DNA from: a virus
Virus record (IMG/VR): IMGVR_UViG_3300030110_003594
Location: 55,869 to 119,868 of that record
DNA length: 64,000 nucleotides
Direction: 5' to 3' (one strand)
Under the pieces are notes generated by a model. That model searched no databases. It had not been told where the DNA came from and saw nothing but the letters and a program-made list of their open reading frames with translations. Below are positions 1 to 19,779 of this stretch, piece after piece. Every line of letters begins with the position of its first letter. Position 1 is the first letter of the stretch. Made by a program: the position numbers and the translations under genes.

Positions 1-2051
1 GCTCCTTTTGTAGGTCTGTATCTTGATTCCTGTATACTATTATATGGTTGTTCAAAATTTAACATCATATTAAGAAGATCTATTCTTTCTTTATATGATA
101 CTTCTAATCCTTTATTTATATCTGGATTTGATTTCAATGCTTCATCTATATTAGCTCTTTTTTGTTCTAGATTACCATAAAGACCTGCTTCTATAACTCT
201 ATTAAAGAAATTATCATAATCATGTGGACTAATATTTTCTGCAATATTCTTTTTCATTTCATCTCTTAGCCAAGCAATCATACTAGGACCACCCATTGCA
301 GGAGTCAATATTTTATTAAGCGGGTGTTTAGGATTAATCGTTTCATTTGCATGATCATGTATTTGCCATACAGGACTTACAACATTTTTAATACCTTCAT
401 ATATTTTTTTAGCGTTTCCTTTTTCTTCTCCTCCTTCTTTCTTTTCAAATACATATCTTCCTTCATCATCTATTGTATAATACATTCTATTATATAATGA
501 TGCTGGTTGTACTCCTAATATATTTTCTTGTGCAAAATCAGAAAGTTTTTCCTTCCAACCTCCTTCATATTGATATGGAGATAAATCCCATTTATCATAG
601 TAACTAATGTATTTACCTTTTTTATCTTCTCCTTGATTTAAAGTAAAGTTACCTAAAACGGAACCATAAAATCCACCAGACTGACCAGTTCCCTCTTCTT
701 CATTTCCAGCTGTTGTTAAAAAAGTTTCAAAATCAGGAAACTCAACCCAGCTATAATTATCCTCTATTTGTTTTTTTGTTTCCTTTTCCCATTTTTTATA
801 ATTACTACTATTTACAAAATCTTTGTGTTCTTGTATATCTTTATAGTATATGTACTTATCTGGCTCATCTTCTGCTTTATATTTTAATGTTGTTGCTTGT
901 TTACCATTCCACATATATGGATCATTCTCTGGATCATTGCTTTTCTTAAGATCAATTAGCCTATAAAAAAGCTCATAATCAAATTCCTCTTCTAAATTTT
1001 CTTCCCAAGCTTTATCTATATCTTCTGGATCACCCCGCTCATCTAACAAATAATCCCTATACCAAATGTCTTTTTCAGTTTTTCCTATCCTATTAATATT
1101 TTCTTCAATTTCCTGTTCAGTGTATGGTGAGGAATAATATATATCTCCTTTGTTATGACCTTGAGTAGGAACGTATGTAGTTTGTTGTGGTATTGAATTA
1201 CCTTCTTGATCAAGACCCATTAACAAATGTAATAAATCTCTTCTTTCACCAGTTGCATCTTCACCTATATCTCCAAAATCATATTTTTTATCTTCTTTGG
1301 TAAAAATAGCATCATAAAGTCTATCATATGCATCTTCATATCCCCATGGATCTATATTATCTGCTATTTTATTTTTTACCCAATCCACACCTTTATCAAC
1401 TAGATAACTAGTAGTAGGCATAAGAGGACCTAGTAAATTTATCATGCCTAATCCATCCTGTGCTTTTGGTAGTGAACCTCCATCTTTAAATCTATGTTGT
1501 AAAGATATTTTAGGTTTAAATTGTAATGGTAGTTTTTGTACATTTTGATTTACAAAATATTCATGAGGATCATTTAAGATTGGTGAACCAATATTTAAAG
1601 CTAGATCTGTATTTCCAAAATTCTGTCTAATACCTAAATCAAACGCACCTTTAAATATAGGATCATTATCCATTGGTAAAATACCAGTTGCATTAAACTG
1701 TGTACCTGTTGGAAAAGTATATCCTGCACCACCTATCAATTGATTTTCTGCAGGATTATGATGTAAGAATGCACCAATATTTTTTCTTTGTCCTGGATCC
1801 CAACTAAAAGTATTTTTTAATGGTATCTCTTTAACTTTTGTTGTACCCATATTATGTATACCAGAATTAGGAGGTAATAATCTACCATTAGCTAATAATG
1901 GAATACTAACATTTGTCATATCTATTTCACCTGTTGGTGTATCAATATCTATGTAAGGTCTACTCTTAAAAGGAGAATCATCCCTATATCCAAACTTTGA
2001 TATAAGTTCATTACTTGAAGGTATTTTATATTTTATTTTTGGTTCACTCAT
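1..2051 (-). CDS. Partial large virion protein, cargo-like (C-terminus outside window)
   Basis: An uninterrupted minus-strand frame runs from ATG at 2051 to the left edge (about 683 codons) with no stop, so the C-terminus is missing. The start overlaps the stop of the muzzle-like gene by one base (TAATG), indicating one operon. The protein begins MSEPKIKYKIPSSNEL and is rich in Asn, Asp, Lys and aromatic residues. I see no enzyme motif, signal peptide or clear membrane segment. In crAss-like phages the gene after the muzzle encodes a large internal cargo protein; by position this would be its counterpart. The frame is certain; the role is inferred from synteny only. Confidence 0.75.
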   Translation of the reverse strand, partial: MSEPKIKYKIPSSNELISKFGYRDDSPFKSRPYIDIDTPTGEIDMTNVSIPLLANGRLLPPNSGIHNMGTTKVKEIPLKNTFSWDPGQRKNIGAFLHHNPAENQLIGGAGYTFPTGTQFNATGILPMDNDPIFKGAFDLGIRQNFGNTDLALNIGSPILNDPHEYFVNQNVQKLPLQFKPKISLQHRFKDGGSLPKAQDGLGMINLLGPLMPTTSYLVDKGVDWVKNKIADNIDPWGYEDAYDRLYDAIFTKEDKKYDFGDIGEDATGERRDLLHLLMGLDQEGNSIPQQTTYVPTQGHNKGDIYYSSPYTEQEIEENINRIGKTEKDIWYRDYLLDERGDPEDIDKAWEENLEEEFDYELFYRLIDLKKSNDPENDPYMWNGKQATTLKYKAEDEPDKYIYYKDIQEHKDFVNSSNYKKWEKETKKQIEDNYSWVEFPDFETFLTTAGNEEEGTGQSGGFYGSVLGNFTLNQGEDKKGKYISYYDKWDLSPYQYEGGWKEKLSDFAQENILGVQPASLYNRMYYTIDDEGRYVFEKKEGGEEKGNAKKIYEGIKNVVSPVWQIHDHANETINPKHPLNKILTPAMGGPSMIAWLRDEMKKNIAENISPHDYDNFFNRVIEAGLYGNLEQKRANIDEALKSNPDINKGLEVSYKERIDLLNMMLNFEQPYNSIQESRYRPTKG

Positions 2052-5000
2052 TATCTAAAAGATGCATTAATTTTTGTATTAGCTAATTTTAATATCATTT
2101 TTCTATCAGCAGATATATTTTTTCTAAGTATAACTTTATTCCAGTAATGTCTAAATTTCTTACGTTGTAGCTCTGGTTTATTATAATCTAAGTTTGCTTG
2201 ATTTAAATCTTTTATATAACCATTTAATTGTGTTATAAATATTGGCAGATTCCAGTTAGGATCAAACTCACCTCTATCTCTTGTAATATCCCAGAACTGA
2301 TTAAATCTATATTTCTGTTCTACTTTACTATATAGTATTCTTATCTCATTACCTGTAATAAAAGGGAATTGTGTAATTAAAGGTACATTGTTTTTAGGAT
2401 CTAGTGTTAATGCAAGTTCCCCTGATACTTGTTCAGTGTTGTGTATTATTGCATGATCAAAATTCCAATCTAAATCATGGAATCTATCACCACAATTATC
2501 ATCTAAGTTTCCTCTATAGATATAAGATTCTAATTGATACTCTACACTTCTAATTGTATTAACAGTTTGACCTACAGCTTCAACCCATTCTATTTCCCAT
2601 GGATAATTTTCTCCATAATAGTTTGCATATAAATCACATCTATCATTATGTTTCCATATACCACCTTTTGTAAATGTTCCATCTAAACAACATTCATAAT
2701 CATAATGACACATTTTAGGATTAGAGTTAACCCATAAAGGATCTCCAACACCTGTGGTTGTATTATACCATTTTGCTATACCATTCATAATATCTGAAGG
2801 ACATATTCCTGTTGTTGTTACAGGTATTGATGGAAATGGTAATTGAGTTGGATCACATTCACATTCCATTTTTCTACATACACCATTTTTACCCTCAACT
2901 ACACAACTTTCATTTAATCCTAAAACTTGATGAGGAGGTGCTGTACCATCTGTTAATTGAGTTATTCTTTCGTATCCTGCAGGACATGAACATACTGGAG
3001 GTAATGTACATAAATTATTAGCTAATGTAGTTGCAAAATCAGTAACAGTAGCTGGAGTTAAACTTAAGTTTTGATAATTTGTATCACCAGCTGTTACTAT
3101 ATCAAAATCAGCCTGATTAGCAGTTCCAGTTGGATGACAATATAATCCCCAGCTTTCTGAAGAAATAGTTGCTAATCCTGCAGTCTCAGCTGCATTAGCA
3201 TAACCAACATTAAAACCAGGATTATTTGGATTTCCACTTGCATCATTATTAGGAAAGCTTGAAGGCATAGCTCCTTGTAAAGATTGATAATATTGAGAAG
3301 CGTGAGCTCCACCACCATTATCACCACCATCTGCCATTATAATACAAATACGTTTATAAGCTGAATGATCTGTTCTATCTCCTAAAGTAGAATTAAGTAC
3401 ACCAGATAACTGTTGTTGTGCATCATCAAATGCACAAAAGAAACCAGTAGTACCACCATCACCTGGTATATAATCACTTCCCCAAGTTGTTGAAACTGTA
3501 TAATTAGACATATTTACTTCACCCTCAAGTACCCCTCCTGATCCATCTGGAGATGGTGTATGGTTATAATAATCACCACAACTATCCCATGAAGCTAATC
3601 CTATTTGAACATCTCCACTATCCATATCAGTTTTAAATGCCAATACAAAATCATCAACAAAACTTCTAAAATGGTGTAGAAAATCTTCTGTAGAACCTGA
3701 TTTATCAATAGCAAGTACAATATCTAATTGACAATCAAGTTGCTCTATATAAAATTCAACAGGTACTTCATCAACAATTACATCTGCTTCATAACTACCT
3801 TGAAATACTTGACAACATGTTTGTGTTGATGGATTCCAAGTAAAGCCAGGAGGACAATTTGGTTCAGCCTCAAGATCTTCATAACTATTAGTTGTGAAGA
3901 AATGATTTAAACTTGGTATCATTAATTCAGGATGCCAATCGTGGAATGACATCCAAGCTTCATATTTAGGATCATAACTTATTGTCCATGATACATCTTC
4001 AAAATATGTTTCATCTTGTAATGAAACTGGCGTTGTATTATCTAACATTTCAACAGGAGCATATTCTCTACATTCACACATATATTGTCCAGCAGAATTT
4101 GTTATTAAATCACATGTAGGATCTGCACATGAATATGTTGGTGGAGGTGTTACATCATCTATTATTTCAGTTGCTACAGCTATTATATCTGCAACATCTG
4201 CAAAAGCTCCTCCATATGCATTACCAGAATTTGCAAATTCTTCACCATAATTTAAATGTAGATTTGTTGGAGCATTACCACCTGGATCAACAACAACTGA
4301 ATAACTTTTTTGAGCATATGGTGCATTCATATAATCAGGATTATTTAATACATTAGTATTAAACCATGTACATTCATAATCACCTACACTCCAAGTAGTA
4401 GTTGTAGTTGGATCACCTGGCCAAACAACATCAGGAGTTAATGGACTTACACTCATTCCTTTGTATATATCAGTACCTGTAATACCAGCTTCACTATATG
4501 AACTACTTACATAAGATATACCTGGACCTCCGTTTGCTTGTAATATTGAAATACTACCTTCAGCTACTTGACCTCCATCAAATAATGAAATTAAAACTTT
4601 AGGAACTGATCTAGAACCTGTTCCATATAATAAATTTTGTCCATTCCATACTCCTCCTAATATATCTGTTCCATAAGGATTGTCATCACCTTGACCTAAA
4701 CCTGTAGAAGTTGATACTCCTCTATCTGCTGCTATTCCATATGTAGATGTTACATCAGGTTGATAACCTGTATTAGCACCATTCCAATCAAATGTTATTC
4801 CTGGTGTACCAACCCATTGATTAATAAGTGTCATATCACTAGTTAATTCTTGTTGTTCTCCCCAATTCATAAAAGTATCCGGAGAAGAACAATCTGGACA
4901 ATTACCTGGATTGTTACAATCTGCTGATGTTTGACCATGATCTGACATTGGAATATCTGAACATCTACCACCACCAAAATGAGTTAATCCAATTCTAATG

Positions 5001-8000
5001 TTTCCACTTCCTATTTGAGTTGCTAATTGGTCAATCATTACTTTTATAAAATTCTGCATATTACCAATATTATTATTGCTATCTACAGAATTTGATGCAT
5101 CAACTACAAATACAATATCTACTTGACCACCTTCTTGATCTTCTATTGCAGGATATAAATTTATTTTTTCACACTCTTCACCAACAGGATTTCCAGGATT
5201 ATATGTAAATCCATCTGGACAACAAGGAGTTGCAGGAACATTATTACAAGCCGTATTATTATAAACAAATCCTTCACATGGAACAAAATCTATACATTCT
5301 GGTAATATACAATTATAATCTTTTTTACTAAAATATATTAAATCATAATTTGGATCATATACTGATTGACATCCAATTCCTGCAACAGGATTATCTACCC
5401 AGTTATTACAACCTTCCATTCCAGGATATTGGTTTAAAAGAAAAGATGGTAAGTATTTATTAAACCATTGTTTCATTCCTTTATTAGCAATATTTTCTAA
5501 AGATTGTCCATTATATTTAAATACTTTTCCTTGAGCTTGAGATATATAAAATAATCCAGATGGTGTATTAATAACACTTCTTGCACTTTCACATGATCCA
5601 TATTCATATGATATATCTGTATTTACTACATTTTGCATAGGTTGACTAAATAAACCACCATCACCTATTGTAAGTTTAGTTCCTAGATCTGTTTGTAATT
5701 GATCTACTCCTTGCCACATTGCTGGTGCAAGGTTTGGAAATAATATCATTGCACCACTTTTAGATACTGGTTTAATTACATTAACTCTATTTTTAAAGTC
5801 TTTATAATTTAACGGTAAGAACACTCTCCAAAAATCTTTTTTAGCTTCAAGTTGTGCTTGTAATGAATATATAAGTCTTTTAGGATAATGCCTATAACAT
5901 TTTTCTGATACTAATGGATCATAATCTTTTGGTTGAATAAATCCAAAAGATATTAATTGACTAAAAAATCTACCTTTACTTAATGAAGAATCATATTTAT
6001 AAAAATTATCTTTTCTTATAATATCAGCATCAAATAATGCTTCTACATCTGTATACTCTAACCAATCATAATGTCTTTTTTCATCTACATCTTCCCAATC
6101 TCTTAATGCTACATTAATAGTTGATTCAACAAAAAACTCATTAACACCATTACAATGAGTATACATATATCCATTTTTAATATGAAATATAGAACTACTT
6201 CCTGTAGGCATATTAGGTGCAACTTGATTAGGAGCAGCAGTATTAACTGGTCCACTTGCTGTTGCATCTTCATCTTCACTACTTGAAGAACCAGATGAAG
6301 AACCTCCATCATCATCAGCTAAATCACCACCCGGTCTATCTAAAAAATATAAACCGCTAGGCATAGCTCCTGCTAATCCACCAGGAGTTGAACCTGTTAA
6401 AAAACTAAGATTTGTTATTTGTCTTACCATTTCTGATAATTCAAATTTCTTAGTATCCATCCAATAGATAGGACGTGGAACATTAGATCTTAATTTATAA
6501 TCATATGCAAACATATCTGGTTGACCTTTTAGAAAGTCCCAGAAGAATGGCATTATTACTTTTTCTGAATATCTATTTAAATAACAATCTCCTCCATATA
6601 TTGTAGGAGTTGTAAATCTATTAGCATTATTTATTTCACTTCCTGTTAACGGATCTGTTATAATTTCATATGTCCATGGTATAATTTCTCCACTTGAATT
6701 ATATCTTCTTTGATCTTCAAAATATGATATACATCCTGAAGGAACTTGTTTTATTTGATCTAATTGACCATACTGATTTTTAAATGCAACTTTTAATGCA
6801 GTATAATGTGCAGCTATATTTGCTTGTCTATATTGTCCAGGATTCCACCATCCACTAAAGTTACCTATAATAAATTTAGAGTTATCCATTTCTCCAACAG
6901 GTGCTGGAAAATCTGCTTCTCCAGTTGTAATTGTATTTATACAAACTGTCTTAGGTCTTTGTAAATTATTAACTCTTACATTTGCTGTTAAATTTTGCAT
7001 TGATGAACCAACATATCTAGCTTTATTAACTAATTGTCTAAATGGTGACCATCCGTCTCTTTGTTGTGTTGCCCAATATAATCCATGCCCACTATATTTC
7101 CATGCATAATCTTGCATGCTAACTAAATTATATATCATATCTATTACTACTTGTCCACCTTCTGCTGTAAATGACATAAATTGATACAAACCAAATACAA
7201 GTTGTGCTAATGATGGAAGAGCTTCAAATCTAGCTCCTTCAAATTCTACTGATGTATTTGGACCAACATGTCCAGCTGTTGCTGCTGCAGCTGCATTTTC
7301 TTCTGTTGCAAATAAAGGTTCATAGAAAAATCTTTGTGCCATCTTTGGTGCACCTACAACTGTTGATGCACTCAATACACTTTCATTAGCATTCATTCCT
7401 GCAAGTGTAGCTAAATTACCTGTTAACATAAGACCAGCATTAGCTGCTGCTGCAGCAGTAACTGCCCCAAATCCAGGAGCCATACCTGTAAGTGTTGGTT
7501 CAGGAATTTGAATTACTTCATTTGCAGTAACAAGAGTATAAATATATTCTGCTGCAGTTGCAAAAATAACACTACCTTCAAGATATGTTACAGCACCAGT
7601 AATACCTCCAAGATGCGTGTCTAAACTATATGGACCTCCTTCTCGTCCTATTGATAATGATCTTGCTCCATCCATTTTGGTATTACGTTTACCACGCATT
7701 TCTCCAATAGCATAACCAGCACCTACAAATATTGCAATCCACATACATACATTTCTAAGAAGTTTATTTTGTGGATGTTTTTCAGATGGTTTAAATCTAC
7801 CTAAAGAAGTACCTGTAACCATTCCATATGTTTTTAATTCATACGGAGATAAGAAAGGTTTATTAAAGGATGTTTCTGGTGAATGAAAAGTAAATAAATT
7901 TGTTGCTGTATATCCTGCAGAATATGGAGTATCAGCTTGTCTATTACCGTTAGCAACATATGAAAAAGTATTACTACCTGATAAATAAGGATCTGAATTA

Positions 8001-9985
8001 CAATCATTAAAAGGATAATTTGGTATAAATCCTTGTGTTCCTACAGTTTCATGACCTTGTGCGTTAGGAGGTAAATCATATCTTCTCATGTTTCTTGCTA
8101 AACCTTTTGCTATAATAGATTTATTACCTTCTCTTGAGCCAATTAATATTTCATATCCTACTATATTTGGAATAAGATTTCCTGTTGGTCTTCCATCTTC
8201 TGGGCCGCACTCTTCATCTGTTGATGCATTAAATCTTGGCCATGAAATATTCATAAATTTAACACCTAATACATTTATAAATTGATTTGGATTACCATCT
8301 GCATCTCCAGAACTTCTATCAAGATAATGATTATTTGATACTGTAACATCTGAATCTCCATCAATTAATTCTGTCCATGCTGTTGATTCATCAGGAAATT
8401 TATGATGTCTTATTGGTTTACCACAAAGATCATGGTCTGGACTACCTGTGTTTGAATTCCATCTTGTAGGATCTTGAGGGTATCTTTCTGTAGATTCCCA
8501 ATATCCCATATGACCTTCTCTAACAACTATTCCTCCATCTTCTGTTCGTTCAGCATCTTCAATATCAATATTCCAACCATTATCAGCAGTGTTGTGAACT
8601 TCAAATAATCTATCACCTTCATACGGTCCTATTTCACCATTTTGTACCCATGCTGCTGTACCTAAATCATTATTGCCAGGCCAAGGGTCTAATACATTAG
8701 GATTTGCTCCTGCACCATCTTGTATACCTGACCAGTTATAAGGAGCTCTTCCTGGAATATGATATGATGAAGATTTTTCACCTGTATTATAAACAAACCT
8801 AATAAAGAAAGAATAAACTTCATCTCTCATAAATGTAGGTTTATTTCCTCCTTTTGCATAGTAATCAGATGGAAATTGTGTAACAGTCCAATGTGTATGA
8901 ATCTGATTAGCTAAAGGTTGATAATTAAAATCAAATTGTTCAGTTGGACCTTGCCTTACTAAATAATCATTAACAACATACATTTTATCTGTTCTTTCAT
9001 ATGCTGGTGTTGTTATTGGTAATGACTCAACTGGAATTGTTTTTAATTTTTGATTTATATAATCAATATTTATATGTGTTTGTTCTGTACTATAAAAACC
9101 TAATTGTTTTGCTTGCTGTTCACCTTGATTAAAACTACAAACTACCAATTGATAATATTCAAAATTTTTATCTAAATTACTTATATTAACATCTAATCCT
9201 GATAACATGTCTTCATGATCAAATAATGGTTGTACATTTGACATACCATAATAATCACCAACTACTTGATCATTTATAACATATGCAATAAATATTTGAT
9301 ATGATCCATTTCTTAATTGTCCACCATCTGGTGATTTAGATAATTTAATACATGGAATATCAACTAATGGTGCTAATCTTATTCTTTCACAGTCAAGACA
9401 TAATGGTTGTATATCTTCATAAATTACACAATCAGCACCTTCATCTGAAATAACTTTTCTATGCCAAGGTATATTATCTAAATTTAAAGTTCTAGATGGA
9501 TTTACAGCGTCATCCCAATATATCTGCCAAGTACAATCAAAGTTTTCTTTTGCTGCTCCTGTTATTAAATGTTGTGTATTAAAGTTTAAACAAGGTGTAT
9601 ATACTGGAGTTGAATTTGGAAATTGATCTGAACATTGATAACAACTATAATCATTTACCAATGTTTCATATTTACATTCACTATCATCCCATGTACCTAT
9701 TTCACTTTGTTCATTATTAGTTGAAAATAAAACCCATTTATCTCCATATAAATGAATAGCTCCAATAATTGTAAAAGGTGCTGAAGAACATTGTTTATTT
9801 GCTGGTTCATTTCCTAATGTACCTATATCACCATCTTTAGAATTATTAATAGCATTTCTAGCATGAGTCCATTGATCCTTTCCTACTAAACTAGCATTGG
9901 GATCAGTGGTCATCCCTTTAACAAATATATCCGTATCTATATTTGTAGTATTTTGAGGTTGTGGTGTATTCTGCTTTTCAGCCAT
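2051..9985 (-). CDS. Giant muzzle/tail-stabilisation-like protein with two inserted vWA domains
   Basis: 2,644 residues. The N-terminal part (TGAAKENFDCTWQIYWDD, LNLDNIPW, the GDKWVLFSTNN region) resembles the P22 gp10-like / crAss muzzle family that closes the distal end of the short tail. The C-terminus (KFRHYWNKVILRKN, then MILKLANTKINASFR) fits the same family. Two von Willebrand A domains are inserted late: MIDAS motif DASNS at about residue 1629 (domain about 1620-1945) and DKSGS at about 2094 (domain about 2085-2325). Each is preceded by a Cys module of the form CPxGFTxNP. A hydrophobic Ala/Gly-rich stretch lies at about residues 750-870. A Ser/Asp-rich linker lies near residue 1235. 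It is much longer than I would expect for the family. It lies in an operon with the ring-like genes upstream and the cargo-like gene downstream. Muzzle assignment is fairly likely; the vWA domains are clear. Confidence 0.8.
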   Translation of the reverse strand: MAEKQNTPQPQNTTNIDTDIFVKGMTTDPNASLVGKDQWTHARNAINNSKDGDIGTLGNEPANKQCSSAPFTIIGAIHLYGDKWVLFSTNNEQSEIGTWDDSECKYETLVNDYSCYQCSDQFPNSTPVYTPCLNFNTQHLITGAAKENFDCTWQIYWDDAVNPSRTLNLDNIPWHRKVISDEGADCVIYEDIQPLCLDCERIRLAPLVDIPCIKLSKSPDGGQLRNGSYQIFIAYVINDQVVGDYYGMSNVQPLFDHEDMLSGLDVNISNLDKNFEYYQLVVCSFNQGEQQAKQLGFYSTEQTHINIDYINQKLKTIPVESLPITTPAYERTDKMYVVNDYLVRQGPTEQFDFNYQPLANQIHTHWTVTQFPSDYYAKGGNKPTFMRDEVYSFFIRFVYNTGEKSSSYHIPGRAPYNWSGIQDGAGANPNVLDPWPGNNDLGTAAWVQNGEIGPYEGDRLFEVHNTADNGWNIDIEDAERTEDGGIVVREGHMGYWESTERYPQDPTRWNSNTGSPDHDLCGKPIRHHKFPDESTAWTELIDGDSDVTVSNNHYLDRSSGDADGNPNQFINVLGVKFMNISWPRFNASTDEECGPEDGRPTGNLIPNIVGYEILIGSREGNKSIIAKGLARNMRRYDLPPNAQGHETVGTQGFIPNYPFNDCNSDPYLSGSNTFSYVANGNRQADTPYSAGYTATNLFTFHSPETSFNKPFLSPYELKTYGMVTGTSLGRFKPSEKHPQNKLLRNVCMWIAIFVGAGYAIGEMRGKRNTKMDGARSLSIGREGGPYSLDTHLGGITGAVTYLEGSVIFATAAEYIYTLVTANEVIQIPEPTLTGMAPGFGAVTAAAAANAGLMLTGNLATLAGMNANESVLSASTVVGAPKMAQRFFYEPLFATEENAAAAATAGHVGPNTSVEFEGARFEALPSLAQLVFGLYQFMSFTAEGGQVVIDMIYNLVSMQDYAWKYSGHGLYWATQQRDGWSPFRQLVNKARYVGSSMQNLTANVRVNNLQRPKTVCINTITTGEADFPAPVGEMDNSKFIIGNFSGWWNPGQYRQANIAAHYTALKVAFKNQYGQLDQIKQVPSGCISYFEDQRRYNSSGEIIPWTYEIITDPLTGSEINNANRFTTPTIYGGDCYLNRYSEKVIMPFFWDFLKGQPDMFAYDYKLRSNVPRPIYWMDTKKFELSEMVRQITNLSFLTGSTPGGLAGAMPSGLYFLDRPGGDLADDDGGSSSGSSSSEDEDATASGPVNTAAPNQVAPNMPTGSSSIFHIKNGYMYTHCNGVNEFFVESTINVALRDWEDVDEKRHYDWLEYTDVEALFDADIIRKDNFYKYDSSLSKGRFFSQLISFGFIQPKDYDPLVSEKCYRHYPKRLIYSLQAQLEAKKDFWRVFLPLNYKDFKNRVNVIKPVSKSGAMILFPNLAPAMWQGVDQLQTDLGTKLTIGDGGLFSQPMQNVVNTDISYEYGSCESARSVINTPSGLFYISQAQGKVFKYNGQSLENIANKGMKQWFNKYLPSFLLNQYPGMEGCNNWVDNPVAGIGCQSVYDPNYDLIYFSKKDYNCILPECIDFVPCEGFVYNNTACNNVPATPCCPDGFTYNPGNPVGEECEKINLYPAIEDQEGGQVDIVFVVDASNSVDSNNNIGNMQNFIKVMIDQLATQIGSGNIRIGLTHFGGGRCSDIPMSDHGQTSADCNNPGNCPDCSSPDTFMNWGEQQELTSDMTLINQWVGTPGITFDWNGANTGYQPDVTSTYGIAADRGVSTSTGLGQGDDNPYGTDILGGVWNGQNLLYGTGSRSVPKVLISLFDGGQVAEGSISILQANGGPGISYVSSSYSEAGITGTDIYKGMSVSPLTPDVVWPGDPTTTTTWSVGDYECTWFNTNVLNNPDYMNAPYAQKSYSVVVDPGGNAPTNLHLNYGEEFANSGNAYGGAFADVADIIAVATEIIDDVTPPPTYSCADPTCDLITNSAGQYMCECREYAPVEMLDNTTPVSLQDETYFEDVSWTISYDPKYEAWMSFHDWHPELMIPSLNHFFTTNSYEDLEAEPNCPPGFTWNPSTQTCCQVFQGSYEADVIVDEVPVEFYIEQLDCQLDIVLAIDKSGSTEDFLHHFRSFVDDFVLAFKTDMDSGDVQIGLASWDSCGDYYNHTPSPDGSGGVLEGEVNMSNYTVSTTWGSDYIPGDGGTTGFFCAFDDAQQQLSGVLNSTLGDRTDHSAYKRICIIMADGGDNGGGAHASQYYQSLQGAMPSSFPNNDASGNPNNPGFNVGYANAAETAGLATISSESWGLYCHPTGTANQADFDIVTAGDTNYQNLSLTPATVTDFATTLANNLCTLPPVCSCPAGYERITQLTDGTAPPHQVLGLNESCVVEGKNGVCRKMECECDPTQLPFPSIPVTTTGICPSDIMNGIAKWYNTTTGVGDPLWVNSNPKMCHYDYECCLDGTFTKGGIWKHNDRCDLYANYYGENYPWEIEWVEAVGQTVNTIRSVEYQLESYIYRGNLDDNCGDRFHDLDWNFDHAIIHNTEQVSGELALTLDPKNNVPLITQFPFITGNEIRILYSKVEQKYRFNQFWDITRDRGEFDPNWNLPIFITQLNGYIKDLNQANLDYNKPELQRKKFRHYWNKVILRKNISADRKMILKLANTKINASFR

Positions 9986-9998: not shown

Positions 9999-10907
9999 TT
10001 AACCTCCCAATGTAGGATGGCTTTTAAACATATTATAGTAATTATGATATTGGGCTCTCCTATTTACTTCCCACATTTTTCTCATTTCTTCAAAGTCAGG
10101 TGTATTAACAAAACCAAGAGCATTATTTCTTGCTGCTCTCAATTTACCTTGAATGAATGATAATTGGTTAGATACGTTTTCACCAGAAAATATCATGTTT
10201 TCTAAAATTCTTTCTTTTAATGCATATTCATAATATTCATTGCAATATGGATGATCTAAAACTAAAAGATTACCCTCATTATCTTCCATAGCACCTTGAT
10301 AACTTATATAAACATTTCCTGTTTTAAAATTTGTTATTAAATAATTATCTCTAATTTCAGCAATATTCATTGATTGAATATTAACATTAGGACAATCACA
10401 TAATACTTTATTTGAATTACTTATTCTTAAAGGCATATAATTTGAATAAGTTCTATATTGTTCAGCTCCTACAAATTGAACTACCATATATTCATCATAT
10501 GTTGTTGTTCCATCTTTTGTTGTAGGACATGTTTGAACAACACAAACATCTTTACATGAATCTGGTGTAAGACATTGATTAGGACCATCTGGATCTGGAA
10601 CATATTTTGTATATGTAGTATCTACAGTTGTACCTGCAGGAGGAGTATTACTAACAGTATATGATCCACAGCAAAAAGCATAATTTAATGTATAAAAATC
10701 TTCTGGTAATTGACCTTTACTATGTTCAATATCTATGACAGTTTCTTTTGTTCTATTTATTCTAAGACCTAAATCATAGTTTACTCTTGTAGCAACCTTA
10801 ATTAATTGTTGAGGTTCAATCATACCTTCTAATGCTTGAGTTGAAAAATCAACTGATACATCTTCAAGTAATTGATTAAATGTTCTATATTTATGTGATA
10901 CTGCCAT
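9999..10907 (-). CDS. Tail ring / stabilisation-like protein
   Basis: 302 residues. The start is fixed by a one-base TAATG overlap with the upstream gene. The N-terminus (RTFNQLLEDVSVDFSTQ, then RVNYDLGLRINRTKE) has the form of crAss-like tail ring/adaptor proteins, which stack below the portal. A Cys-containing insertion (about residues 75-130) holds the CLTPDSC and VCVVQTC segments. The C-terminal part is helical (YYEYALKERILENMIF). It lies immediately before the muzzle-like gene, the place where such ring proteins are normally encoded. Family membership is judged from sequence style and position, so the exact ring number is not assigned. Confidence 0.6.
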   Translation of the reverse strand: MAVSHKYRTFNQLLEDVSVDFSTQALEGMIEPQQLIKVATRVNYDLGLRINRTKETVIDIEHSKGQLPEDFYTLNYAFCCGSYTVSNTPPAGTTVDTTYTKYVPDPDGPNQCLTPDSCKDVCVVQTCPTTKDGTTTYDEYMVVQFVGAEQYRTYSNYMPLRISNSNKVLCDCPNVNIQSMNIAEIRDNYLITNFKTGNVYISYQGAMEDNEGNLLVLDHPYCNEYYEYALKERILENMIFSGENVSNQLSFIQGKLRAARNNALGFVNTPDFEEMRKMWEVNRRAQYHNYYNMFKSHPTLGG

Positions 10908-11578
10908 TATCTATTAATATTTATTTTATTATCTGAATCTTCTGCAGGAACTTTCATTGTATTTAGCAATTGATTCATAACTTGTGTTTCTATTTCAGCA
11001 AATAAAAATTCTGGAATATACATATTTTGTAAATATCTTGGAGTACAGTCATCATCAGGATCACAATTCCATTTAGATATATCACCTTCAAAAATACCTT
11101 CTATTTTTATAGCATCCCACTCTACGTTTGGAACATATATATAATCATTTAACCACCAAAAATATTTTGTTTTATTGTATTTAAATGATGTTGTTTTTGT
11201 CATAGAAGCATAAGTTCCAGGATTAGTTGGTTGCATTTCAATTGAACCATCTATTGAACTTACAGTACGTATAAGTGGTCCCCAATATCCTTCCATAAAC
11301 ATTGGAAGTTTTTCTTTAGTTCTTTTTATTGTACATCCACTTTGTATTCCACTACATTTTGCTTCAACCTTATCTACTTCAATTAATTCAACAAAAGGTA
11401 GTGATTGCCATACACTATTAAACTTCATTAATTTATTGGCATTATCTTGTCTTCTCATTAATAATTGCCCGTATTTTAATATAAGACTATATAGATACCT
11501 GTCTGTTACAAATGAGTCTTGTACTTCAGCTTTTATTGATTCTCTAACTCTAGAGACTACTTGACCTATTGTTGTCAT
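10907..11578 (-). CDS. Tail ring / head-tail adaptor-like protein
   Basis: 223 residues, with an N-terminal helical part (VVSRVRESIKAEVQDSFVTD, then RYLYSLILKYGQLLMRRQD) typical of conserved crAss-like ring proteins that join portal and tail. The central part is beta-rich with two Cys pairs (KCSGIQSGC and NCDPDDDC). The C-terminus ends NKININR. It overlaps the following ring-like gene by one base and sits 5 bp after the upstream gene, so the three are probably co-translated. Function is inferred from synteny with the portal-to-muzzle order in crAss-like phages. Confidence 0.6.
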   Translation of the reverse strand: MTTIGQVVSRVRESIKAEVQDSFVTDRYLYSLILKYGQLLMRRQDNANKLMKFNSVWQSLPFVELIEVDKVEAKCSGIQSGCTIKRTKEKLPMFMEGYWGPLIRTVSSIDGSIEMQPTNPGTYASMTKTTSFKYNKTKYFWWLNDYIYVPNVEWDAIKIEGIFEGDISKWNCDPDDDCTPRYLQNMYIPEFLFAEIETQVMNQLLNTMKVPAEDSDNKININR

Positions 11579-13374: not shown

Positions 13375-13393
13375 AAATATTGTATAAAAAACA

Positions 13394-13419
13394 GAAGCCC
13401 CAGATTTCTCTGAGGCTTC
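13394..13419 (-). terminator. Intrinsic terminator after the FnIII gene
   Basis: On the minus strand an 11-bp stem (GAAGCCTCAGA with TCTGGGGCTTC, one G-T pair) with a 4-base loop is followed by TGTTTTTTAT. This is a standard intrinsic terminator for transcripts arriving from the 13463-14011 gene. Confidence 0.8.
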
Positions 13420-13462
13420 AAACAATTGCAGAGTTAAAACCAACAAACTGTCTCCACTTTTG

Positions 13463-14011: not shown

Positions 14012-14030
14012 TTTTTTTATTTTTTAATTA

Positions 14031-17000
14031 TTAGGTACATGTTCCTATATTTTTCCAATGAGGTCCTGATGATCCTGCATCATATTGTGCATAATATTTA
14101 CCTGTTGTTCCATCATGAATAGCATACCATTGATTATTAATTAATTCATTCTTTCCTTTAATGTTTTGTGCAGCTGCAGATCTAGTTGAATATGCTCTAG
14201 AATTTAATATAGTTGCAGGGAAAGGTGTTCCTGGTGGAGTATCTCCTTCAGCTGATGTATATATTGGAGCATGTGTAACTGAACCAGCTGCTGTACAAGC
14301 ACTTGGTCCATCTACTGCACTATTTCCAAATCCAACAGCTCCTGCTCCTATTTGACCATATCCTTTAGCAGTAGGTTCATTTACATTACCTGTTGGTAAC
14401 ATATTGAACATTCCTCTAAAATATGTTGTTATATCAGAATTGATAGAATTATCTAATTCTACACCAGATTCTATATAAGCATGTACTGATGTGCTAGTGT
14501 TTGTTGTATCTTTTAAACCTGCTACACTAGTATGATATGGAATATCTGGACCTGCAACTGCAGCATCTAAGTAGCCAGCAAAATTTAGTCCTGTTACTCC
14601 ATTCCATTTATATTTTCTTAATCCAGCTTTTATACCCATATATTCTTGAGGTGTTAATAATGTTTGACCCTGAACGGCTGCAAACATTTGTAATGCTGCA
14701 TTAGCTGTAACAGCTGCTTCATCTCCAACAATATTTACAATAACTTGGTCATATGTAAATGGTTTATGAGTAGCTGTCCAAGGTGAACTAGCTAATCCTT
14801 GGAAAAGACCTGCCCATGCAGATGCAGAAGTTCCGTCATTTATATCTGCAATTGCATCCCAATCTTCTTCATATTTATAAGGTATAGAACCACCTGAAGT
14901 TGTAGGCCCAAAATTTGTCCAAGATGGACTTGTTGGTACTGTTGCTAAATCAGTATATGTACCACGTGTACCAACTGATGTAACACCGTTTACAAATGAT
15001 ATAATTTTAATATCCGTTGGATATTCTGCTGTTGCTCCTGACCAATAAGCTGGAAGTGTTCCTCCACTATTCATTACATTTGTCCACCATCCTCCTACTG
15101 TAGGCCAAGTTATAGATTTGTTAGTACCATCAAATGAATCAAAAGTACCAATATTTTCAACACATGCTTTTACATGTTTTAAATAATCTCCTGATCTATT
15201 TCCATTTACAGCAACATAATAAAAATTAGGTTTAGTACTACCTACAAATGTATTTCTAATATTATTAAATGAAGCTTTAATTTTAATTGCATTAGCTTCA
15301 TTTATACTTTGTGTATCAAAGAATACTATAACATCACTACTTGTATATCTTATTGGTTTTGCTGGTAATATTGAAACAGCTCTTGATAATACTACAGTAC
15401 CACAATCATTAGTTAATGAAACAGTAAATGAATCAGCTACCATGTTTGTATTATCTTGTATATAATTATATCTTACTTGAGAAGTTGATGTTGCTAAATT
15501 TGTTAAAGAACCATGATCTGGTTGTTTAGTAATAGTCCAAGAATATGTACCAGTTCCAGAAGTATATCCTACAGCATCTACTGTTACTTCAGTATTTCCT
15601 CCTTTATTACAATAATAAACTGGTTGAGGTGTATCTAAATATAAACCTGAACAATTACATGCAAATACAACTTTATCTATTGTTTTTGTATTTGTATTAA
15701 CAGCAGCATATACATATAATAAATTTCCTATAGGATCTAATAGTGTTCCAAAATATTTGAATCCGCTATCATTATTATTTCTATTAATAGATGTAGGTGA
15801 CAATGGTGAACCAGTCATACCTGTAACAACAAGAGGTGCTGTTGCTAGTTCACTATCTATAAATGATCCATTATGTGACCATCCTGATATATCTGTAACT
15901 GATGTATCTTGAATTACAATTGGTTCATTTGTAGTATCAAAACCAACAGTCCATTTTGTTTGAGTTACTCCATCATTATAAAAAGCTAAATCCATTGTAT
16001 TAGCTCCTGCTTTTAAGAATGTACTTGGAGTAGCTGTTAAATGCCAAGTTGCATCTGATGATACTCTTGCTTTAGTTGTGCATGTTGGAGCTAATGTTGA
16101 TACTACTTGAATTGCACATTGAGTTGGTGTTGAAGATCCTTTTCTTAATACTTCTACAAAAACTTGATATTGTGATGCTCCTGATAAATTTGAAAATGTA
16201 CCACTTATTCCAGAACTAAATGCTGTATATGAACGTGAATCTAGTAATTTACCTGTAGACGTTCTAAGTACTGCTGTTATTGTATGACCTGAATTTGCAG
16301 GAATTCTTATATTACTAACAGAAAATGGAATTGAATCACTTGTAACAGCTCCTATAGTTATATCAGGACATACTAATTCATTATCTATAGTAAAGTTTTG
16401 TACCTCTTGGCACATGTTATCTGCATTAGAACTACAAAATTCTACTTTTACTGAGTAATTGCTTCCTAAATCTAAATTACCCATATTACCTGCACCTATT
16501 GTATATGCAGTATTATTTTGATAATTTCCAGATACATCTACATATTTTACTAATGAATTTAATGATGCATCTGTTATAGTTACTTTTGTTCCTTGTGGAT
16601 TACAATCAGAATATGAAGTAGGTATATTTGTTCCTTGAAAATCTAAAGCAACAGCTGAGAAAGCACCTTCTGATGTTCTTGTGATAGATCCATTAACAGA
16701 ATATGTAATATCACCACATAGAGGATTTGCTACTGTTTCTTTTATACTTTGTACAGCATTTCTTGTATCATTCAGTGTTACCCATAAATTTTGTACTGAT
16801 TGTGCTAAGTTTACTGGGTTACCTATAAATTGAGGTATTGCACTCATTGTTCCACTACCACTTAATTTATCTCTACCTCCTAATGCTGGTGCAACATTTA
16901 AAGCTGTATTTATTGCAGCTGGTGTTCCTGTTGCTCTTTCTAATTCACCTAAAGTTTGTTCTGTAGCAACTACCACTGATTCTAATCCCATTGGTACACC

Positions 17001-17603
17001 AGGTGTTCCAACATATGAAGGTATAACCATTGAATGAGGATTTTCACCACCTCCAGGTGATGTTCCATGTTCATGACAACAATGATTTTCAATATGTGTT
17101 ATTCTACCTTCGTGATTTGCTACTATTGTATTAATACTACTTATTGCACTTATATTATCACAAATTTTATTTGCAAGAAGTTGTGCATATCCAAAATTTG
17201 AATTTGCATCATATAATGGTAATTCTGTAACTAATCTACCTGTACCTTCTTCTGTATATTTTAAACATGGAGGTAATGGTATAACACATGAACAAGGATC
17301 TGTTGTTTGTCCTGAGTTTTCACAACATCTACAAAGCTTATCAACTATGTTTGTTATTAAAGTTTGTACATCATTAGCTTGTCCATATTCACTAATTAAA
17401 CATCCTTGATTAATTGTAGCTATGTCTACCCCTGGTGATACACTTGTTGTATTAAGTATTTCATCACATAACTTAGCTATTATAGTACTTATAGTATCTC
17501 CTGTGCATACATCAACACATGGCAAATCAGGACCTTGCCAAACAACGCAATTTGAAGATGTTTCATCACATCCGTTAGTATTATTTGATTTATTTGGTAT
17601 CAT
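14031..17603 (-). CDS. Large tail-fibre/appendage protein with Ig-like and vWA-like domains
   Basis: 1,190 residues. The N-terminus (CVVWQGPDLPCVDVCTGDTI, then CRCCENSG, CSCVIPLPPC) has the Cys-containing anchoring motif seen in appendage proteins of Bacteroidota phages. FnIII/Ig-like beta domains follow (about residues 400-520 and 655-755). From about residue 757 a vWA-like fold appears: VIVFFDTQSINEANAIKI (degenerate MIDAS, D at about 762), IKIISFVNGV, and QVIVNIVGDEAAV at about 950-962. The C-terminus ends YYAQYDAGSSGPHWKNIGTC, a typical fibre tail. A promoter-like 18-mer lies at 17639-17656. It probably contacts the host surface. The vWA call rests on pattern and on matching segments in the 695-residue protein. 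Confidence 0.7.
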   Translation of the reverse strand: MIPNKSNNTNGCDETSSNCVVWQGPDLPCVDVCTGDTISTIIAKLCDEILNTTSVSPGVDIATINQGCLISEYGQANDVQTLITNIVDKLCRCCENSGQTTDPCSCVIPLPPCLKYTEEGTGRLVTELPLYDANSNFGYAQLLANKICDNISAISSINTIVANHEGRITHIENHCCHEHGTSPGGGENPHSMVIPSYVGTPGVPMGLESVVVATEQTLGELERATGTPAAINTALNVAPALGGRDKLSGSGTMSAIPQFIGNPVNLAQSVQNLWVTLNDTRNAVQSIKETVANPLCGDITYSVNGSITRTSEGAFSAVALDFQGTNIPTSYSDCNPQGTKVTITDASLNSLVKYVDVSGNYQNNTAYTIGAGNMGNLDLGSNYSVKVEFCSSNADNMCQEVQNFTIDNELVCPDITIGAVTSDSIPFSVSNIRIPANSGHTITAVLRTSTGKLLDSRSYTAFSSGISGTFSNLSGASQYQVFVEVLRKGSSTPTQCAIQVVSTLAPTCTTKARVSSDATWHLTATPSTFLKAGANTMDLAFYNDGVTQTKWTVGFDTTNEPIVIQDTSVTDISGWSHNGSFIDSELATAPLVVTGMTGSPLSPTSINRNNNDSGFKYFGTLLDPIGNLLYVYAAVNTNTKTIDKVVFACNCSGLYLDTPQPVYYCNKGGNTEVTVDAVGYTSGTGTYSWTITKQPDHGSLTNLATSTSQVRYNYIQDNTNMVADSFTVSLTNDCGTVVLSRAVSILPAKPIRYTSSDVIVFFDTQSINEANAIKIKASFNNIRNTFVGSTKPNFYYVAVNGNRSGDYLKHVKACVENIGTFDSFDGTNKSITWPTVGGWWTNVMNSGGTLPAYWSGATAEYPTDIKIISFVNGVTSVGTRGTYTDLATVPTSPSWTNFGPTTSGGSIPYKYEEDWDAIADINDGTSASAWAGLFQGLASSPWTATHKPFTYDQVIVNIVGDEAAVTANAALQMFAAVQGQTLLTPQEYMGIKAGLRKYKWNGVTGLNFAGYLDAAVAGPDIPYHTSVAGLKDTTNTSTSVHAYIESGVELDNSINSDITTYFRGMFNMLPTGNVNEPTAKGYGQIGAGAVGFGNSAVDGPSACTAAGSVTHAPIYTSAEGDTPPGTPFPATILNSRAYSTRSAAAQNIKGKNELINNQWYAIHDGTTGKYYAQYDAGSSGPHWKNIGTCT

Positions 17604-17638
17604 AAATATTCTTTTTACAGCTGTAAATTACTAATGTA

Positions 17639-17656
17639 TACACTATAATATACAAA
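17639..17656 (-). promoter_or_regulatory. Late-promoter-like motif (exact copy)
   Basis: The minus strand reads TTTGTATATTATAGTGTA, identical over 18 bases to the site at 20405-20422. A TAAATTTG string, matching the Bacteroidota -7 form TAnnTTTG, overlaps its 5' end. It lies 36 bp upstream of the 1,190-residue appendage gene. Confidence 0.6.
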
Positions 17657-17691
17657 TTTATTAATAAACAACCAAGTGTTTAACTTTACTA

Positions 17692-19779
17692 TTATGTTTC
17701 AGGCGTACAATCAACAGTTAATTTTGTACACACAACTTTTGTTTCTTCAGGTGTAAGTGTAATATCTATCCTTTGTTGATCACAACCGCCTGTTGTTGTG
17801 AAACAATGACATACATCTATAGAGTGTTTTGTATTAGTACTAGCAAAATACTCTGTATGAAGATAAAAACCATCTTTATCTGTCATTCCCACTTCTCTGT
17901 TATCTATATAAATTGGGTAACATTCAATAGGGTTACCCTGATCATCTTTAACATATATACTTATACATTCAGCATCATTAATACATTCTTCATCTCCTGG
18001 ATTCCAAAAGGCTTCTAAGTTTGTTACAAAATCATCTTTTTCAAAACCTGAAACTGGTTGATCAACATTATATCCCCAATTATATTGATCAAGTTTACCC
18101 TTATTTGCAGTTACATAAGGATTAGTACCAGACGTTACTGCTGTTAAAGTACTTACACCATTTGATGGTGCAGATGTTAATAAACCTGAACCAACAGGAT
18201 TATCTCCTGATGTTATTGCTCCAATTACATGTAATGGAAATGCTTTATGAGCATCTTGTACAGTTTTTGGATATGCTGGATATATAAAATAATTAGCTTT
18301 ATAATCTGATCCTTGAGCTAAAAATTTATTATGTTCAATTACAAACTTATCATAATCAGCATTCCAACATGGTGTAGTTGCTAATGTTGTTCCATCTGAT
18401 CCACCACTAGCATGTATCCATGTAGGTGTAGTACTATTTTGATCTACATGATATGGTTGTGGGTATGGTTGTGGAGATGTAGCTTCATCAGCAAATATAA
18501 CAACTAAAAGTTCTTTACTTTGATTTATAGGAGGAGGACCTTGACTTTTTACCGGTAGACCTGAAGGAGTTACTTCACTACCACTATAAGTTGCAGTAGT
18601 AACACCGTTTCCATTATCATACCATTCTATATCTAAAGTATTAATCATATAATCTAAAACCCCCCAATACTTCCATGATGATTTTGATGATGGTGGTTGA
18701 GCTGAATCAACAGCTCCTCCTGTACCACTTGACCAACTTGGATTTTGAGGTCCTATAACTCCTGGTGTTCCTAATCCGTCTGAATAAGCTCCACCACAGA
18801 ATCCAGCATTATTAAATGCTCCTGTATAAGGCATTATAGCCCAATCTAACCATCTTTCTCCATATATTGAAGTATGATATACTCTACCATTAAATGCTCC
18901 TATAGCTCTTAAACCATTTAACCATTGTTCAACTATAATATGTGTATCTTTAACTTCTGCTACACCTAATGATGTTACATCATAAAAGAAATACATATCT
19001 GGATCTTGTCTTCTTCCCTCTCCACAAAATGTACAATCTAAACTTATATTATATTTACACCATTCTACTTTTTCTCCAAAATTTGTTAAATTACGTGTAG
19101 AACCATCTACAAAAGAATTTGGATTCCATGCTCCAATAGTTGTAGTTTTTACTTGATATAATTCTGATCCATCTCCATTTTTATCTATAATTATAGTTAA
19201 TACTTCATCTTCATCAGCACCATTTTTAGGATCTGCAGCATTAGTATTTCCATAAGTTGTTATTTTAAAACTATCACCAGGTACTGCAGCAGGAACTTCA
19301 CCATAACCTACAGTAAGAAATGTAGTAGTTTGATTAGCTGATATTGTACCATCATATTTTGCTAACATATAGATCTTAGTTTTTTCACGTACTAAATATG
19401 AATCTGCGTCAATAACAGCATCACTAAATTTTATAATTTGAGTTTTAGTTGTAGTAATTACTGTAGAACTAAGAGGTGTACAAGGTCTGCATACTTTTCT
19501 AACCCAATCAGGAATAGTAGCATTTTCAAATAACCACTTATAACTTTCATATCCTGTATCTGTATGATCTGTGTATCCTTTGTCTAGGTATACTGGTAAT
19601 TTTTTATCATCCCAGTCACAAAGTTCTTTTTTAGAAGTTATCTTTTCTAATTTATCTAATGAACAACACGGAGACAAGCCATATCTTTCTGATCTCATGT
19701 TTCTAAATCTTAGATCAGCAAATTCTTGTTCTGTCTGTATTTGTTTCTCTATTTCCTCATTTGTCTTTTTGCAACTCAT
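17692..19779 (-). CDS. Appendage protein with vWA-like core and C-terminal beta domain
   Basis: 695 residues. The N-terminus is helical (EEIEKQIQTEQEFADLRFRN) with Cys (SPCCSLDKLEK). A beta region follows, then a vWA-like core: MYFFYDVTSLGVAE at about residue 260 in place of the MIDAS strand, VYHTSIYGERWLDW, and KELLVVIFADEATS at about residues 417-430, matching the DEA segment of the 1,190-residue protein. The last 90 residues (CISIYVKDDQGNPIECYPI, then REVGMTDKDGFYLHTEYF) resemble a carboxypeptidase-regulatory or transthyretin-like beta domain. Rich in Gly, Thr, Asn and Cys as expected of a virion surface protein. Probably a second type of fibre or spike; adhesion is inferred. Confidence 0.65.
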   Translation of the reverse strand: MSCKKTNEEIEKQIQTEQEFADLRFRNMRSERYGLSPCCSLDKLEKITSKKELCDWDDKKLPVYLDKGYTDHTDTGYESYKWLFENATIPDWVRKVCRPCTPLSSTVITTTKTQIIKFSDAVIDADSYLVREKTKIYMLAKYDGTISANQTTTFLTVGYGEVPAAVPGDSFKITTYGNTNAADPKNGADEDEVLTIIIDKNGDGSELYQVKTTTIGAWNPNSFVDGSTRNLTNFGEKVEWCKYNISLDCTFCGEGRRQDPDMYFFYDVTSLGVAEVKDTHIIVEQWLNGLRAIGAFNGRVYHTSIYGERWLDWAIMPYTGAFNNAGFCGGAYSDGLGTPGVIGPQNPSWSSGTGGAVDSAQPPSSKSSWKYWGVLDYMINTLDIEWYDNGNGVTTATYSGSEVTPSGLPVKSQGPPPINQSKELLVVIFADEATSPQPYPQPYHVDQNSTTPTWIHASGGSDGTTLATTPCWNADYDKFVIEHNKFLAQGSDYKANYFIYPAYPKTVQDAHKAFPLHVIGAITSGDNPVGSGLLTSAPSNGVSTLTAVTSGTNPYVTANKGKLDQYNWGYNVDQPVSGFEKDDFVTNLEAFWNPGDEECINDAECISIYVKDDQGNPIECYPIYIDNREVGMTDKDGFYLHTEYFASTNTKHSIDVCHCFTTTGGCDQQRIDITLTPEETKVVCTKLTVDCTPET

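What the first reader, a model, noticed from the sequence alone, without database searches (positions are those of the whole stretch)
2051..19779. Four vWA-like domains across three virion appendage proteins
The muzzle-like protein carries two canonical vWA domains (DASNS, DKSGS), and the 1,190- and 695-residue appendage proteins each carry a vWA-like core with degenerate MIDAS (DTQSI, DVTSL) and matching DEA strand segments (IVGDEAAV, IFADEATS). A metal-dependent adhesion fold repeated in one phage's tail parts suggests a shared host-binding or assembly principle, with intact and decayed copies.
Basis: partly seen in the sequence, partly recalled or inferred. Interest (0 to 1): 0.75.

Follow-up and report, generated by a model that had tools for sequence, protein, structure and literature searches.

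The report
Swappable binding modules on phage tail
A crAss-like virus of bacteria carries two ordinary metal-binding adhesion domains plugged into its tail-tip protein, and one copy each of a second domain family on two neighbouring proteins; comparison with relatives shows that these are plug-in modules that come, go and are replaced, which fits a role in touching the host cell.

Summary
The window lies in a 119,868-base crAss-like phage record. The 2,644-residue protein is the crassvirus muzzle (PF25731, 8e-23) with two canonical vWA domains (PF00092, 2e-10), MIDAS motifs kept in nearly all aligned relatives. They fill two fixed slots that are nearly empty in many other muzzles; elsewhere a slot holds a metzincin-like motif (L011, L022). 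The degenerate cores in the 1,190-residue (A) and 695-residue (B) proteins are real and homologous to each other end to end (hhalign global E 1e-6; shuffles and 28 decoy ORFs far below). No sequence test links either to VWA. A's AlphaFold model (pLDDT 56) has mostly vWA folds as best PDB matches, none significant; B's model failed. 'Decay' is not supported: five A pairs give dN/dS 0.09-0.41, and the same A position holds canonical vWA in other phages. Best reading: exchangeable host-contact modules. Precedent: the swapped vWA of phage 0305phi8-36 gp164 (PMC2147016). New variant of a known kind.

The parts
2051..9985 (-). Muzzle (tail-tip) protein, 2,644 aa, crassvirus gp44 homologue
   Evidence: PF25731 8.4e-23; profile match to crAss001 gp44, E 1.2e-9 for the N-terminal and 3.8e-6 for the C-terminal part
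4022..5317 (-). Muzzle insertion slot 1 (res 1557-1988), between YFSKKD and LQDETYFEDV
   Evidence: 432 aa here; 25-97 aa in 19 of 31 aligned muzzles, 361-859 aa in 12
4286..5152 (-). vWA1 (res 1612-1900) with MIDAS DASNS, T (NPYGTDI), D (LFDGG)
   Evidence: PF00092; triad in 5 of 5 aligned full-length copies, window included, three of them near-identical
2669..3886 (-). Muzzle insertion slot 2 (res 2034-2439), between NHFFTTN and KGGIWKHN
   Evidence: 406 aa here; 1-9 aa in 14 of 31 muzzles, 138-656 aa in 17
2963..3742 (-). vWA2 (res 2082-2341) with MIDAS DKSGS, T (GGTTGF), D (MADGG)
   Evidence: second PF00092 stretch; DxSxS and motif-3 D in 12 of 12 aligned copies, motif-2 T in 10; homologous to vWA1, hhalign E 9e-11
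14031..17603 (-). Protein A, 1,190 aa: conserved N-terminal base (about res 1-500) plus variable C-terminal part
   Evidence: phmmer pattern in relatives; N-terminal anchor in 555 IMG/VR stretches
14589..15332 (-). A vWA-like domain core (res 758-1005), motif-1-like DTQSI at res 763
   Evidence: A-type profile in 29 of 95 anchor ORFs; AlphaFold model and fold search
17692..19779 (-). Protein B, 695 aa: N-terminal anchor, central cassette, C-terminal adaptor
19495..19779 (-). B N-terminal anchor (res 1-95)
   Evidence: 28 of 36 virus records, own included, match protein B, most of them through this part
17983..19062 (-). B central vWA-like cassette (res 240-599), motif-1-like DVTSL res 267, IFADEATS res 428
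   Evidence: homologous to the A domain; absent in L006 and L023, whose 208-aa B has some 48 residues between anchor and adaptor
17695..17985 (-). B C-terminal adaptor (res 599-695)
9999..10907 (-). Ring protein R1 (gp43 homologue), next to the muzzle
   Evidence: profile hit to crAss001 gp43, 4e-6
10907..11578 (-). Ring protein R2 (gp40 homologue)
   Evidence: profile hit to crAss001 gp40, 6.1e-9

Best explanation
The tail of this crAss-like phage is a scaffold with plug-in positions. The muzzle, a hexamer in PhicrAss001, offers two insertion slots in its C-terminal part; here each holds a metal-binding vWA domain. Proteins A and B, encoded upstream of the ring and muzzle genes, each carry, on a conserved base or anchor, one copy of a second domain family that the two share and that probably has a vWA-like alpha/beta fold with a shortened, non-canonical motif 1 (D-x-x-S). 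Shown: the identity of the muzzle, the two canonical vWA domains, the slots, the replacement of modules, the A-B homology. Inferred: that A and B are tail appendages, that the modules face outward and bind host-surface ligands (the muzzle copies through a bound divalent metal), that their exchange retunes host contact, and that the A/B domain is a vWA fold.
For: Canonical vWA. Two precise slots, filled or nearly empty among 31 muzzles. The same slots hold HExxHxxGxxH in L011 (slot 1, by motif only) and L022 (slot 2; Pfam Reprolysin_5 8e-6, 0.4 bits under its cut-off). C-terminal part of A: A-type domain in 29, canonical vWA in 26, neither in 40 of 95 anchor ORFs. B's middle is missing in L006 and L023 and different elsewhere. 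A-B homology: local score 33.9 (E 8e-4, probability 25%), global 35.3 (E 1.3e-6, probability 82%); column shuffles reach at most 17.4 local (60) and 9.5 global (60 and 30), 28 other window ORFs at most 19.6 local and 12.7 global. Between L004 and L012, mostly 97-100% identical, vWA2 falls to 84-94% nucleotide identity. The muzzle forms the tail tip, and the authors of the PhicrAss001 structure expect its crass domain to contact the cell surface (PMC10172136, muzzle section read).
Against: No sequence evidence ties A or B to VWA; A's local hhalign score with canonical vWA (22.6) beats A's own best decoy (17.6) but not that of the canonical profile (21.9). A's model has pLDDT 56 and no PDB fold match at E <= 0.001; B's has 29. 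In L004/L012 two muzzle stretches outside the vWA domains, and stretches of the next genes, diverge as much or more, and vWA1 does not diverge. A and B matched no crAss001 virion protein, so their place in the virion is unproved. No ligand, host or experiment is known to me for these phages.
Confidence: 0.6

Rival explanations
1. The A/B domain is a separate alpha/beta (Rossmann-like) family unrelated to vWA; the D-x-x-S motif is a coincidence of a common strand-loop-helix.
For: No Pfam VWA hit in 24 A-type and 7 B-type members; global hhalign of A and B to three canonical vWA profiles stays in or at the edge of the shuffled range; Ser/Thr at MIDAS position 3 in 7 and at position 5 in 1 of 29 A-type sequences.
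Against: 42 of the 50 PDB Foldseek rows and all but one of the 50 VIA rows are vWA folds by my reading of the titles and recall, many of them repeats of the same proteins; A-type and canonical vWA occupy the same position on the same base.
Confidence: 0.3
2. The modules are structural: they brace the muzzle hexamer or the tail collar or gate ejection, and do not bind the host.
For: Constraint on A in five pairs; [quoted passage not shown]
Against: Slots are nearly empty in many other muzzles; B occurs without a middle domain; fillings differ and one looks enzymatic; local divergence at vWA2.
Confidence: 0.2
3. One reading: one vWA fold multiplied within this phage, with A and B as decayed copies of the muzzle type.
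For: All four cores have a hydrophobic strand ending in D at the start of the domain; B shows dN/dS 0.73-0.76, from few changes.
Against: A and B resemble each other, not the muzzle copies; A is constrained; D-x-T-S-L-G and the D of FADE are kept in six of six second-copy-type B domains, three of them near-identical.
Confidence: 0.07

Closest known systems
Bacillus phage 0305phi8-36 gp164 (PMC2147016; passages seen)
   Same: A vWA domain in the central part of a baseplate/fibre-region protein that is swapped for another domain in relatives
   Different: One copy in another kind of phage; not a muzzle, no shared A/B family
PhicrAss001 muzzle gp44 (PMC10172136; muzzle section read and passages seen)
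   Same: Homologous tail-tip protein; the authors note insertions that can affect its surface
   Different: gp44 (1,371 aa) is described without a vWA domain; the authors place the length variation in the crass and IG2 domains, whereas the slots here map to gp44 about 1200-1235 in a weak stretch of the alignment
Canonical vWA / integrin I domains (PF00092)
   Same: Muzzle vWA1 and vWA2: HMM match and DxSxS..T..D triad
   Different: The A and B domains lack the motif-1 spacing and have no detectable sequence relation
Virus NIOZ-UU157 protein A0A7S9SUN3 (BFVD)
   Same: 1,189 aa, 37% identical over 464 columns, Foldseek E 1.7e-28: a homologue of protein A
   Different: Uncharacterised; the passages I saw that name this virus say nothing of it
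AAA-ATPase-partnered vWA proteins of archaeal viruses and jumbo phages (PMC7824862, PMC7911831; passages seen)
   Same: vWA domains in viral genomes
   Different: Separate proteins encoded next to an ATPase, proposed co-chaperones, not modules within tail proteins

Membership tests
Crassvirus muzzle protein (PF25731) | Curated HMM above cut-off | tested here: met
   80.9 bits, cut-off 27
vWA (PF00092): muzzle vWA1/vWA2 | Curated HMM above cut-off for the protein | tested here: met
   41.5 bits, cut-off 23.8, two stretches; on its own vWA2 scores 14.3 bits, below the cut-off
vWA (PF00092): muzzle vWA1/vWA2 | MIDAS triad DxSxS / T / D | tested here: met
   DASNS 1629, T in NPYGTDI, D in LFDGG; DKSGS 2094, T in GGTTGF, D in MADGG
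vWA (PF00092): A domain | HMM match | tested here: not met
   0 of 24 members match VWA at E <= 1; 0 of 13 at E <= 10
vWA (PF00092): A domain | MIDAS DxSxS | tested here: not met
   position 1 D in 25 of 29; Ser/Thr at position 3 in 7 and at position 5 in 1 of 29
vWA (PF00092): A domain | vWA fold | tested here: inconclusive
   model pLDDT 56; vWA folds head the PDB lists, best E 0.022, best Z 7.4
vWA (PF00092): B domain | HMM match | tested here: not met
   0 of 7 members at E <= 1
vWA (PF00092): B domain | vWA fold | tested here: inconclusive
   model pLDDT 29, unusable; only indirect, through homology to A
One family for the A and B domains | Profile-profile similarity beyond controls along the whole domain | tested here: met
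Metal-dependent adhesin | Binds a ligand through a metal | not testable with these tools
   needs protein

The most novel reading that the evidence does not exclude
The crAss-like muzzle is a display scaffold with two standard sockets that take either vWA adhesins or metzincin proteases, and a second, phage-borne vWA-like domain family circulates among the neighbouring fibre-like proteins A and B; together they form an exchangeable, partly metal-dependent host-recognition kit whose engagement at the tail tip could trigger opening of the muzzle gate.
Probability: 0.3. Interest if true: 0.72.

Novelty: new variant of a known kind. Interest (0 to 1): 0.52.

Why it matters
How crAss-like phages recognise their hosts is, as far as I recall, poorly known. 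Two exact insertion points in the muzzle and one variable position in each of two neighbouring proteins, with a partial list of what fills them, turn host recognition into a testable question: which cassette goes with which host. In the held library no paper contains 'crAss-like', 'muzzle' and 'von Willebrand' together, nor 'crAss-like' with the word 'VWA'; other wordings were not searched, and most subscription papers and all preprints are outside that library.

Tried and rejected
Decay of A and B: rejected on constraint, conservation and family structure. Equivalence of GDEAAV with FADEATS: rejected on register. Actinohivin (a lectin) as a PDB sequence match of the A profile at 7e-5: rejected, since the score sums three internal repeats whose single E-values are 0.39, 14 and 21. 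Arthrobacter major capsid matches to A at E 2-9: taken as chance. A match of A, B, or the 182- and 192-aa neighbours to crAss001 virion proteins: none found; that same search also missed the muzzle, which shows its limits. tblastn of A, B, the 182-aa and 192-aa neighbours and two A relatives in 50,697 phage records: nothing at E <= 0.001. The first hhalign run used an unintended global setting and was repeated in local mode; global mode was then used on purpose with controls. The B model was not fold-searched, as its confidence is too low. An apparent exclusion of muzzle vWA by canonical vWA in A was not pursued: too few independent cases. In the BFVD search the only match at E <= 0.001 is the A homologue itself; six of the 50 rows bear a vWA-type name, none significant.

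Rows dropped and limits of the counts. One search counted 92 anchor ORFs after leaving out 16 loci as repeats, but three of these (L066, L097, L099) had no counted counterpart; one search puts them back: 95 ORFs (29 A-type, 26 canonical, 40 neither), 88 distinct sequences (27, 23, 38). The anchor pattern misses three further A proteins that carry a domain (L014 canonical, L011 and L016 A-type). The 80 loci are the best of 555, hence biased towards the query. In one search, 30 of 40 muzzle loci plus the window were used; seven cut loci and three repeats were left out, while three cut at the 5' end (L005, L033, L040) were kept, and L004, L005 and L012 are near-identical. The window row shows no vWA because the window was not in that script's domain table; its domains come. 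The decoys are 28 minus-strand window ORFs of 100 aa or more, some of which may not be genes. dN/dS values rest on few substitutions, above all for B. Papers: PMC8651126, PMC10892097 and PMC10537231 were seen in passages and add nothing on tail vWA modules; PMC11054128 and PMC13037465 only in a search listing.
Full report
What the window is. The window is bases 55,869-119,868 of a 119,868-base IMG/VR virus record. The 2,644-residue protein at 2051-9985 (-) matches the Pfam crassvirus muzzle (PF25731, 8.4e-23) and VWA (PF00092, 2.1e-10, two stretches). Its neighbours at 9999-10907 and 10907-11578 match crAss001 ring proteins gp43 and gp40 by profile. So this is a crAss-like phage and the protein is the tail-tip muzzle, as in PhicrAss001 (PMC10172136, muzzle section read).

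The two muzzle copies. vWA1 and vWA2 are canonical: DxSxS in 5 of 5 and 12 of 12 aligned full-length copies, the motif-3 D in all 17, the motif-2 T in 15; it is missing in the vWA2 copies of L018 and L023 (some rows are near-identical, and L015 and L043 identical). The two domains are homologous to each other (hhalign E 9e-11). A VWA search of 36 records gave matches in 15 at E <= 0.01, in 6 over the curated cut-off; in the window's own record only the two muzzle domains were found.

Two slots. One IMG/VR scan gave 40 loci with muzzle relatives. In an alignment of 31 muzzles (30 relatives plus the window) there are two exact places where whole modules come and go: slot 1 between YF-KKD and -D--YF-D, 25-97 residues in 19 and 361-859 in 12; slot 2 between NHF-TTK and GG-W-HN, 1-9 residues in 14 and 138-656 in 17. 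vWA domains sit in slot 1 in 7 and in slot 2 in 11 of the 31, counting the window in both; L018 has a further one in slot 1 that only the iterated profile saw. In L011 slot 1 and L022 slot 2 there is HELGHVIGAKH or HEMGHVVGAYH, the metzincin motif as I recall it; Pfam scores L022 res 2208-2476 as Reprolysin_5 at 8.1e-6, 26.6 bits against a cut-off of 27, while L011 was judged by motif only. Several filled slots have no identified content, for example L006 slot 1 and both slots of L013. The slots lie at about gp44 residue 1200-1235 in the profile alignment; this stretch is weakly aligned, and that it belongs to the propeller is inferred from the domain borders given in PMC10172136 (IG2 ends at 1021).

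Protein A (1,190 aa). Relatives share an N-terminal base of about 500 residues and differ beyond it. A conserved N-terminal anchor finds 555 stretches in IMG/VR, of which the best 80 were kept. Among 95 anchor-bearing ORFs, 29 carry the A-type domain, 26 a canonical vWA, and 40 neither; 17 of those 40 are 515 residues or shorter, little more than the base. Of 23 distinct canonical copies 22 have D-Y-[TS]-x-S and 23 the motif-3 TD; Pfam VWA is over its cut-off in L103 and L137 and below it in L017, and the profile matches muzzle vWA2 at E 5e-8. So the same position on the same protein holds canonical vWA in some phages and the A-type domain in others.

Protein B (695 aa). A short N-terminal anchor and a C-terminal adaptor of about 90 residues are kept, and the middle varies. 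Protein B matched 28 of 36 records, own included, most of them through the anchor. L006 and L023 have a 208-residue B with some 48 residues between anchor and adaptor. In what I searched, the window's middle domain recurred only in L004, L012, the L005 record and, twice per protein, in L073 and L076.

A and B share one domain. With 29 A-type and 8 B-type sequences, hhalign gives 33.9 (E 8e-4, probability 25%) locally and 35.3 (E 1.3e-6, probability 82%, 228 columns) globally. Controls: 60 column shuffles reached at most 17.4 and 9.0, the reversed profile 14.2 and 8.7; 30 more global shuffles reached 9.5, and 28 other window ORFs at most 19.6 locally and 12.7 globally. Landmarks run the length of the domain: D-x-x-S after the first strand, Y/W-x-x-D-Y-D, and a final P-Y. 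The tool's own comparison on registered alignments agrees (E 6e-4, 58 columns). The register makes B's IFADEATS equivalent to A's IKIISFVNG, not to IVGDEAAV.

Is the shared domain a vWA? Against: no Pfam match in 24 A-type or 7 B-type members, no PDB sequence relative that I accept, and no global profile link to canonical vWA above controls. The local A-versus-canonical score of 22.6, in the right register, beats A's best decoy (17.6) but not that of the canonical profile (21.9). For: the AlphaFold model of A res 745-1190 has the alternating strand-helix order of an alpha/beta core (pLDDT 56, pTM 0.54), and vWA folds dominate its matches: 42 of the 50 Foldseek PDB rows shown and all but one of 50 VIA rows by my reading of titles and recall, many being repeats of the same proteins; best E 0.022, best Z 7.4. 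Neither passes the usual bar, and the tool warns that Z under 8 may mean only a common arrangement. B's model failed (pLDDT 29). I put the vWA fold of A/B at about 0.65.

Decay or function? Five A-type pairs give dN/dS 0.09, 0.26, 0.41, 0.19 and 0.20, which argues against decay; in L004/L012 B gives 0.76 (0.73 with L052), muzzle vWA1 0.46 and vWA2 0.65, from few changes. Across L004 versus L012, mostly 97-100% identical in 300-base windows, vWA2 drops to 83.7-93.7%, while vWA1 stays at 97.7-98.7%. In the muzzle two other stretches drop too (L004 nt 12301-13200, 69-91%; nt 13501-13800, 74%). Outside it, the following genes have divergent or gapped stretches (nt 19201-21300, 22201-22500 and from 27001), and A has one window at 93%. 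So vWA2 is one of three divergent stretches in the muzzle, not the only one, and B's middle differs little in this pair (95.7-98.7%).

Mechanism. Most likely the modules are outward-facing binding domains exchanged in fixed sockets, the muzzle pair using a bound metal. Shown: domains, sockets, exchange, A-B homology. Inferred: exposure, ligand binding, effect on host range, appendage role of A and B, vWA fold of A/B.

Prior work. A swapped vWA in a baseplate/fibre-region gene is on record for Bacillus phage 0305phi8-36 gp164 (PMC2147016, passages). Archaeal viruses and jumbo phages carry separate vWA proteins next to an ATPase (PMC7824862, PMC7911831, passages), a different kind. Two searches for vWA in crAss-like phages returned no paper.

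Noticed in passing
L022:9965-18475 (muzzle res 2208-2476) and L011:10001-19270 (res 2071): Metzincin-type motif HExxHxxGxxH inside muzzle slots, in place of or beside vWA: a possible tail-tip protease.
   Followed up: partly
L073:1516-5937 and L076:1537-5937: B-type proteins of about 1,470 aa with two copies of the domain, the first with motif 1 lost (YYRGG / YYKGG) and the second with DGTSLG kept.
   Followed up: partly
L004 nt 12301-13200 and 13501-13800 (muzzle), against L012: Two further divergent stretches in the muzzle between otherwise near-identical phages, outside the vWA domains.
   Followed up: no
record behind L007 (G005:C1:85218-85391, -): A 424-residue frame with a partial VWA match (5.3e-4, below cut-off), in another part of the record than the muzzle.
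   Followed up: no
window 12155-13336 (-): 393-aa protein between the tail genes, with 29 sequences gathered from relatives and a GNHD motif that I recall as typical of metallophosphoesterases; not tested.
   Followed up: no
window 13463-14011 (-): 182-aa Cys-rich protein with an fn3 domain (2.2e-5, exactly at Pfam's cut-off), next to A here and in relatives; possibly its partner.
   Followed up: partly
A model m53aefbea6df3 in BFVD: Second-best match S0A289, a 145-aa uncharacterised protein of Cellulophaga phage phi17:1 (E 0.02, probability 0.97).
   Followed up: no
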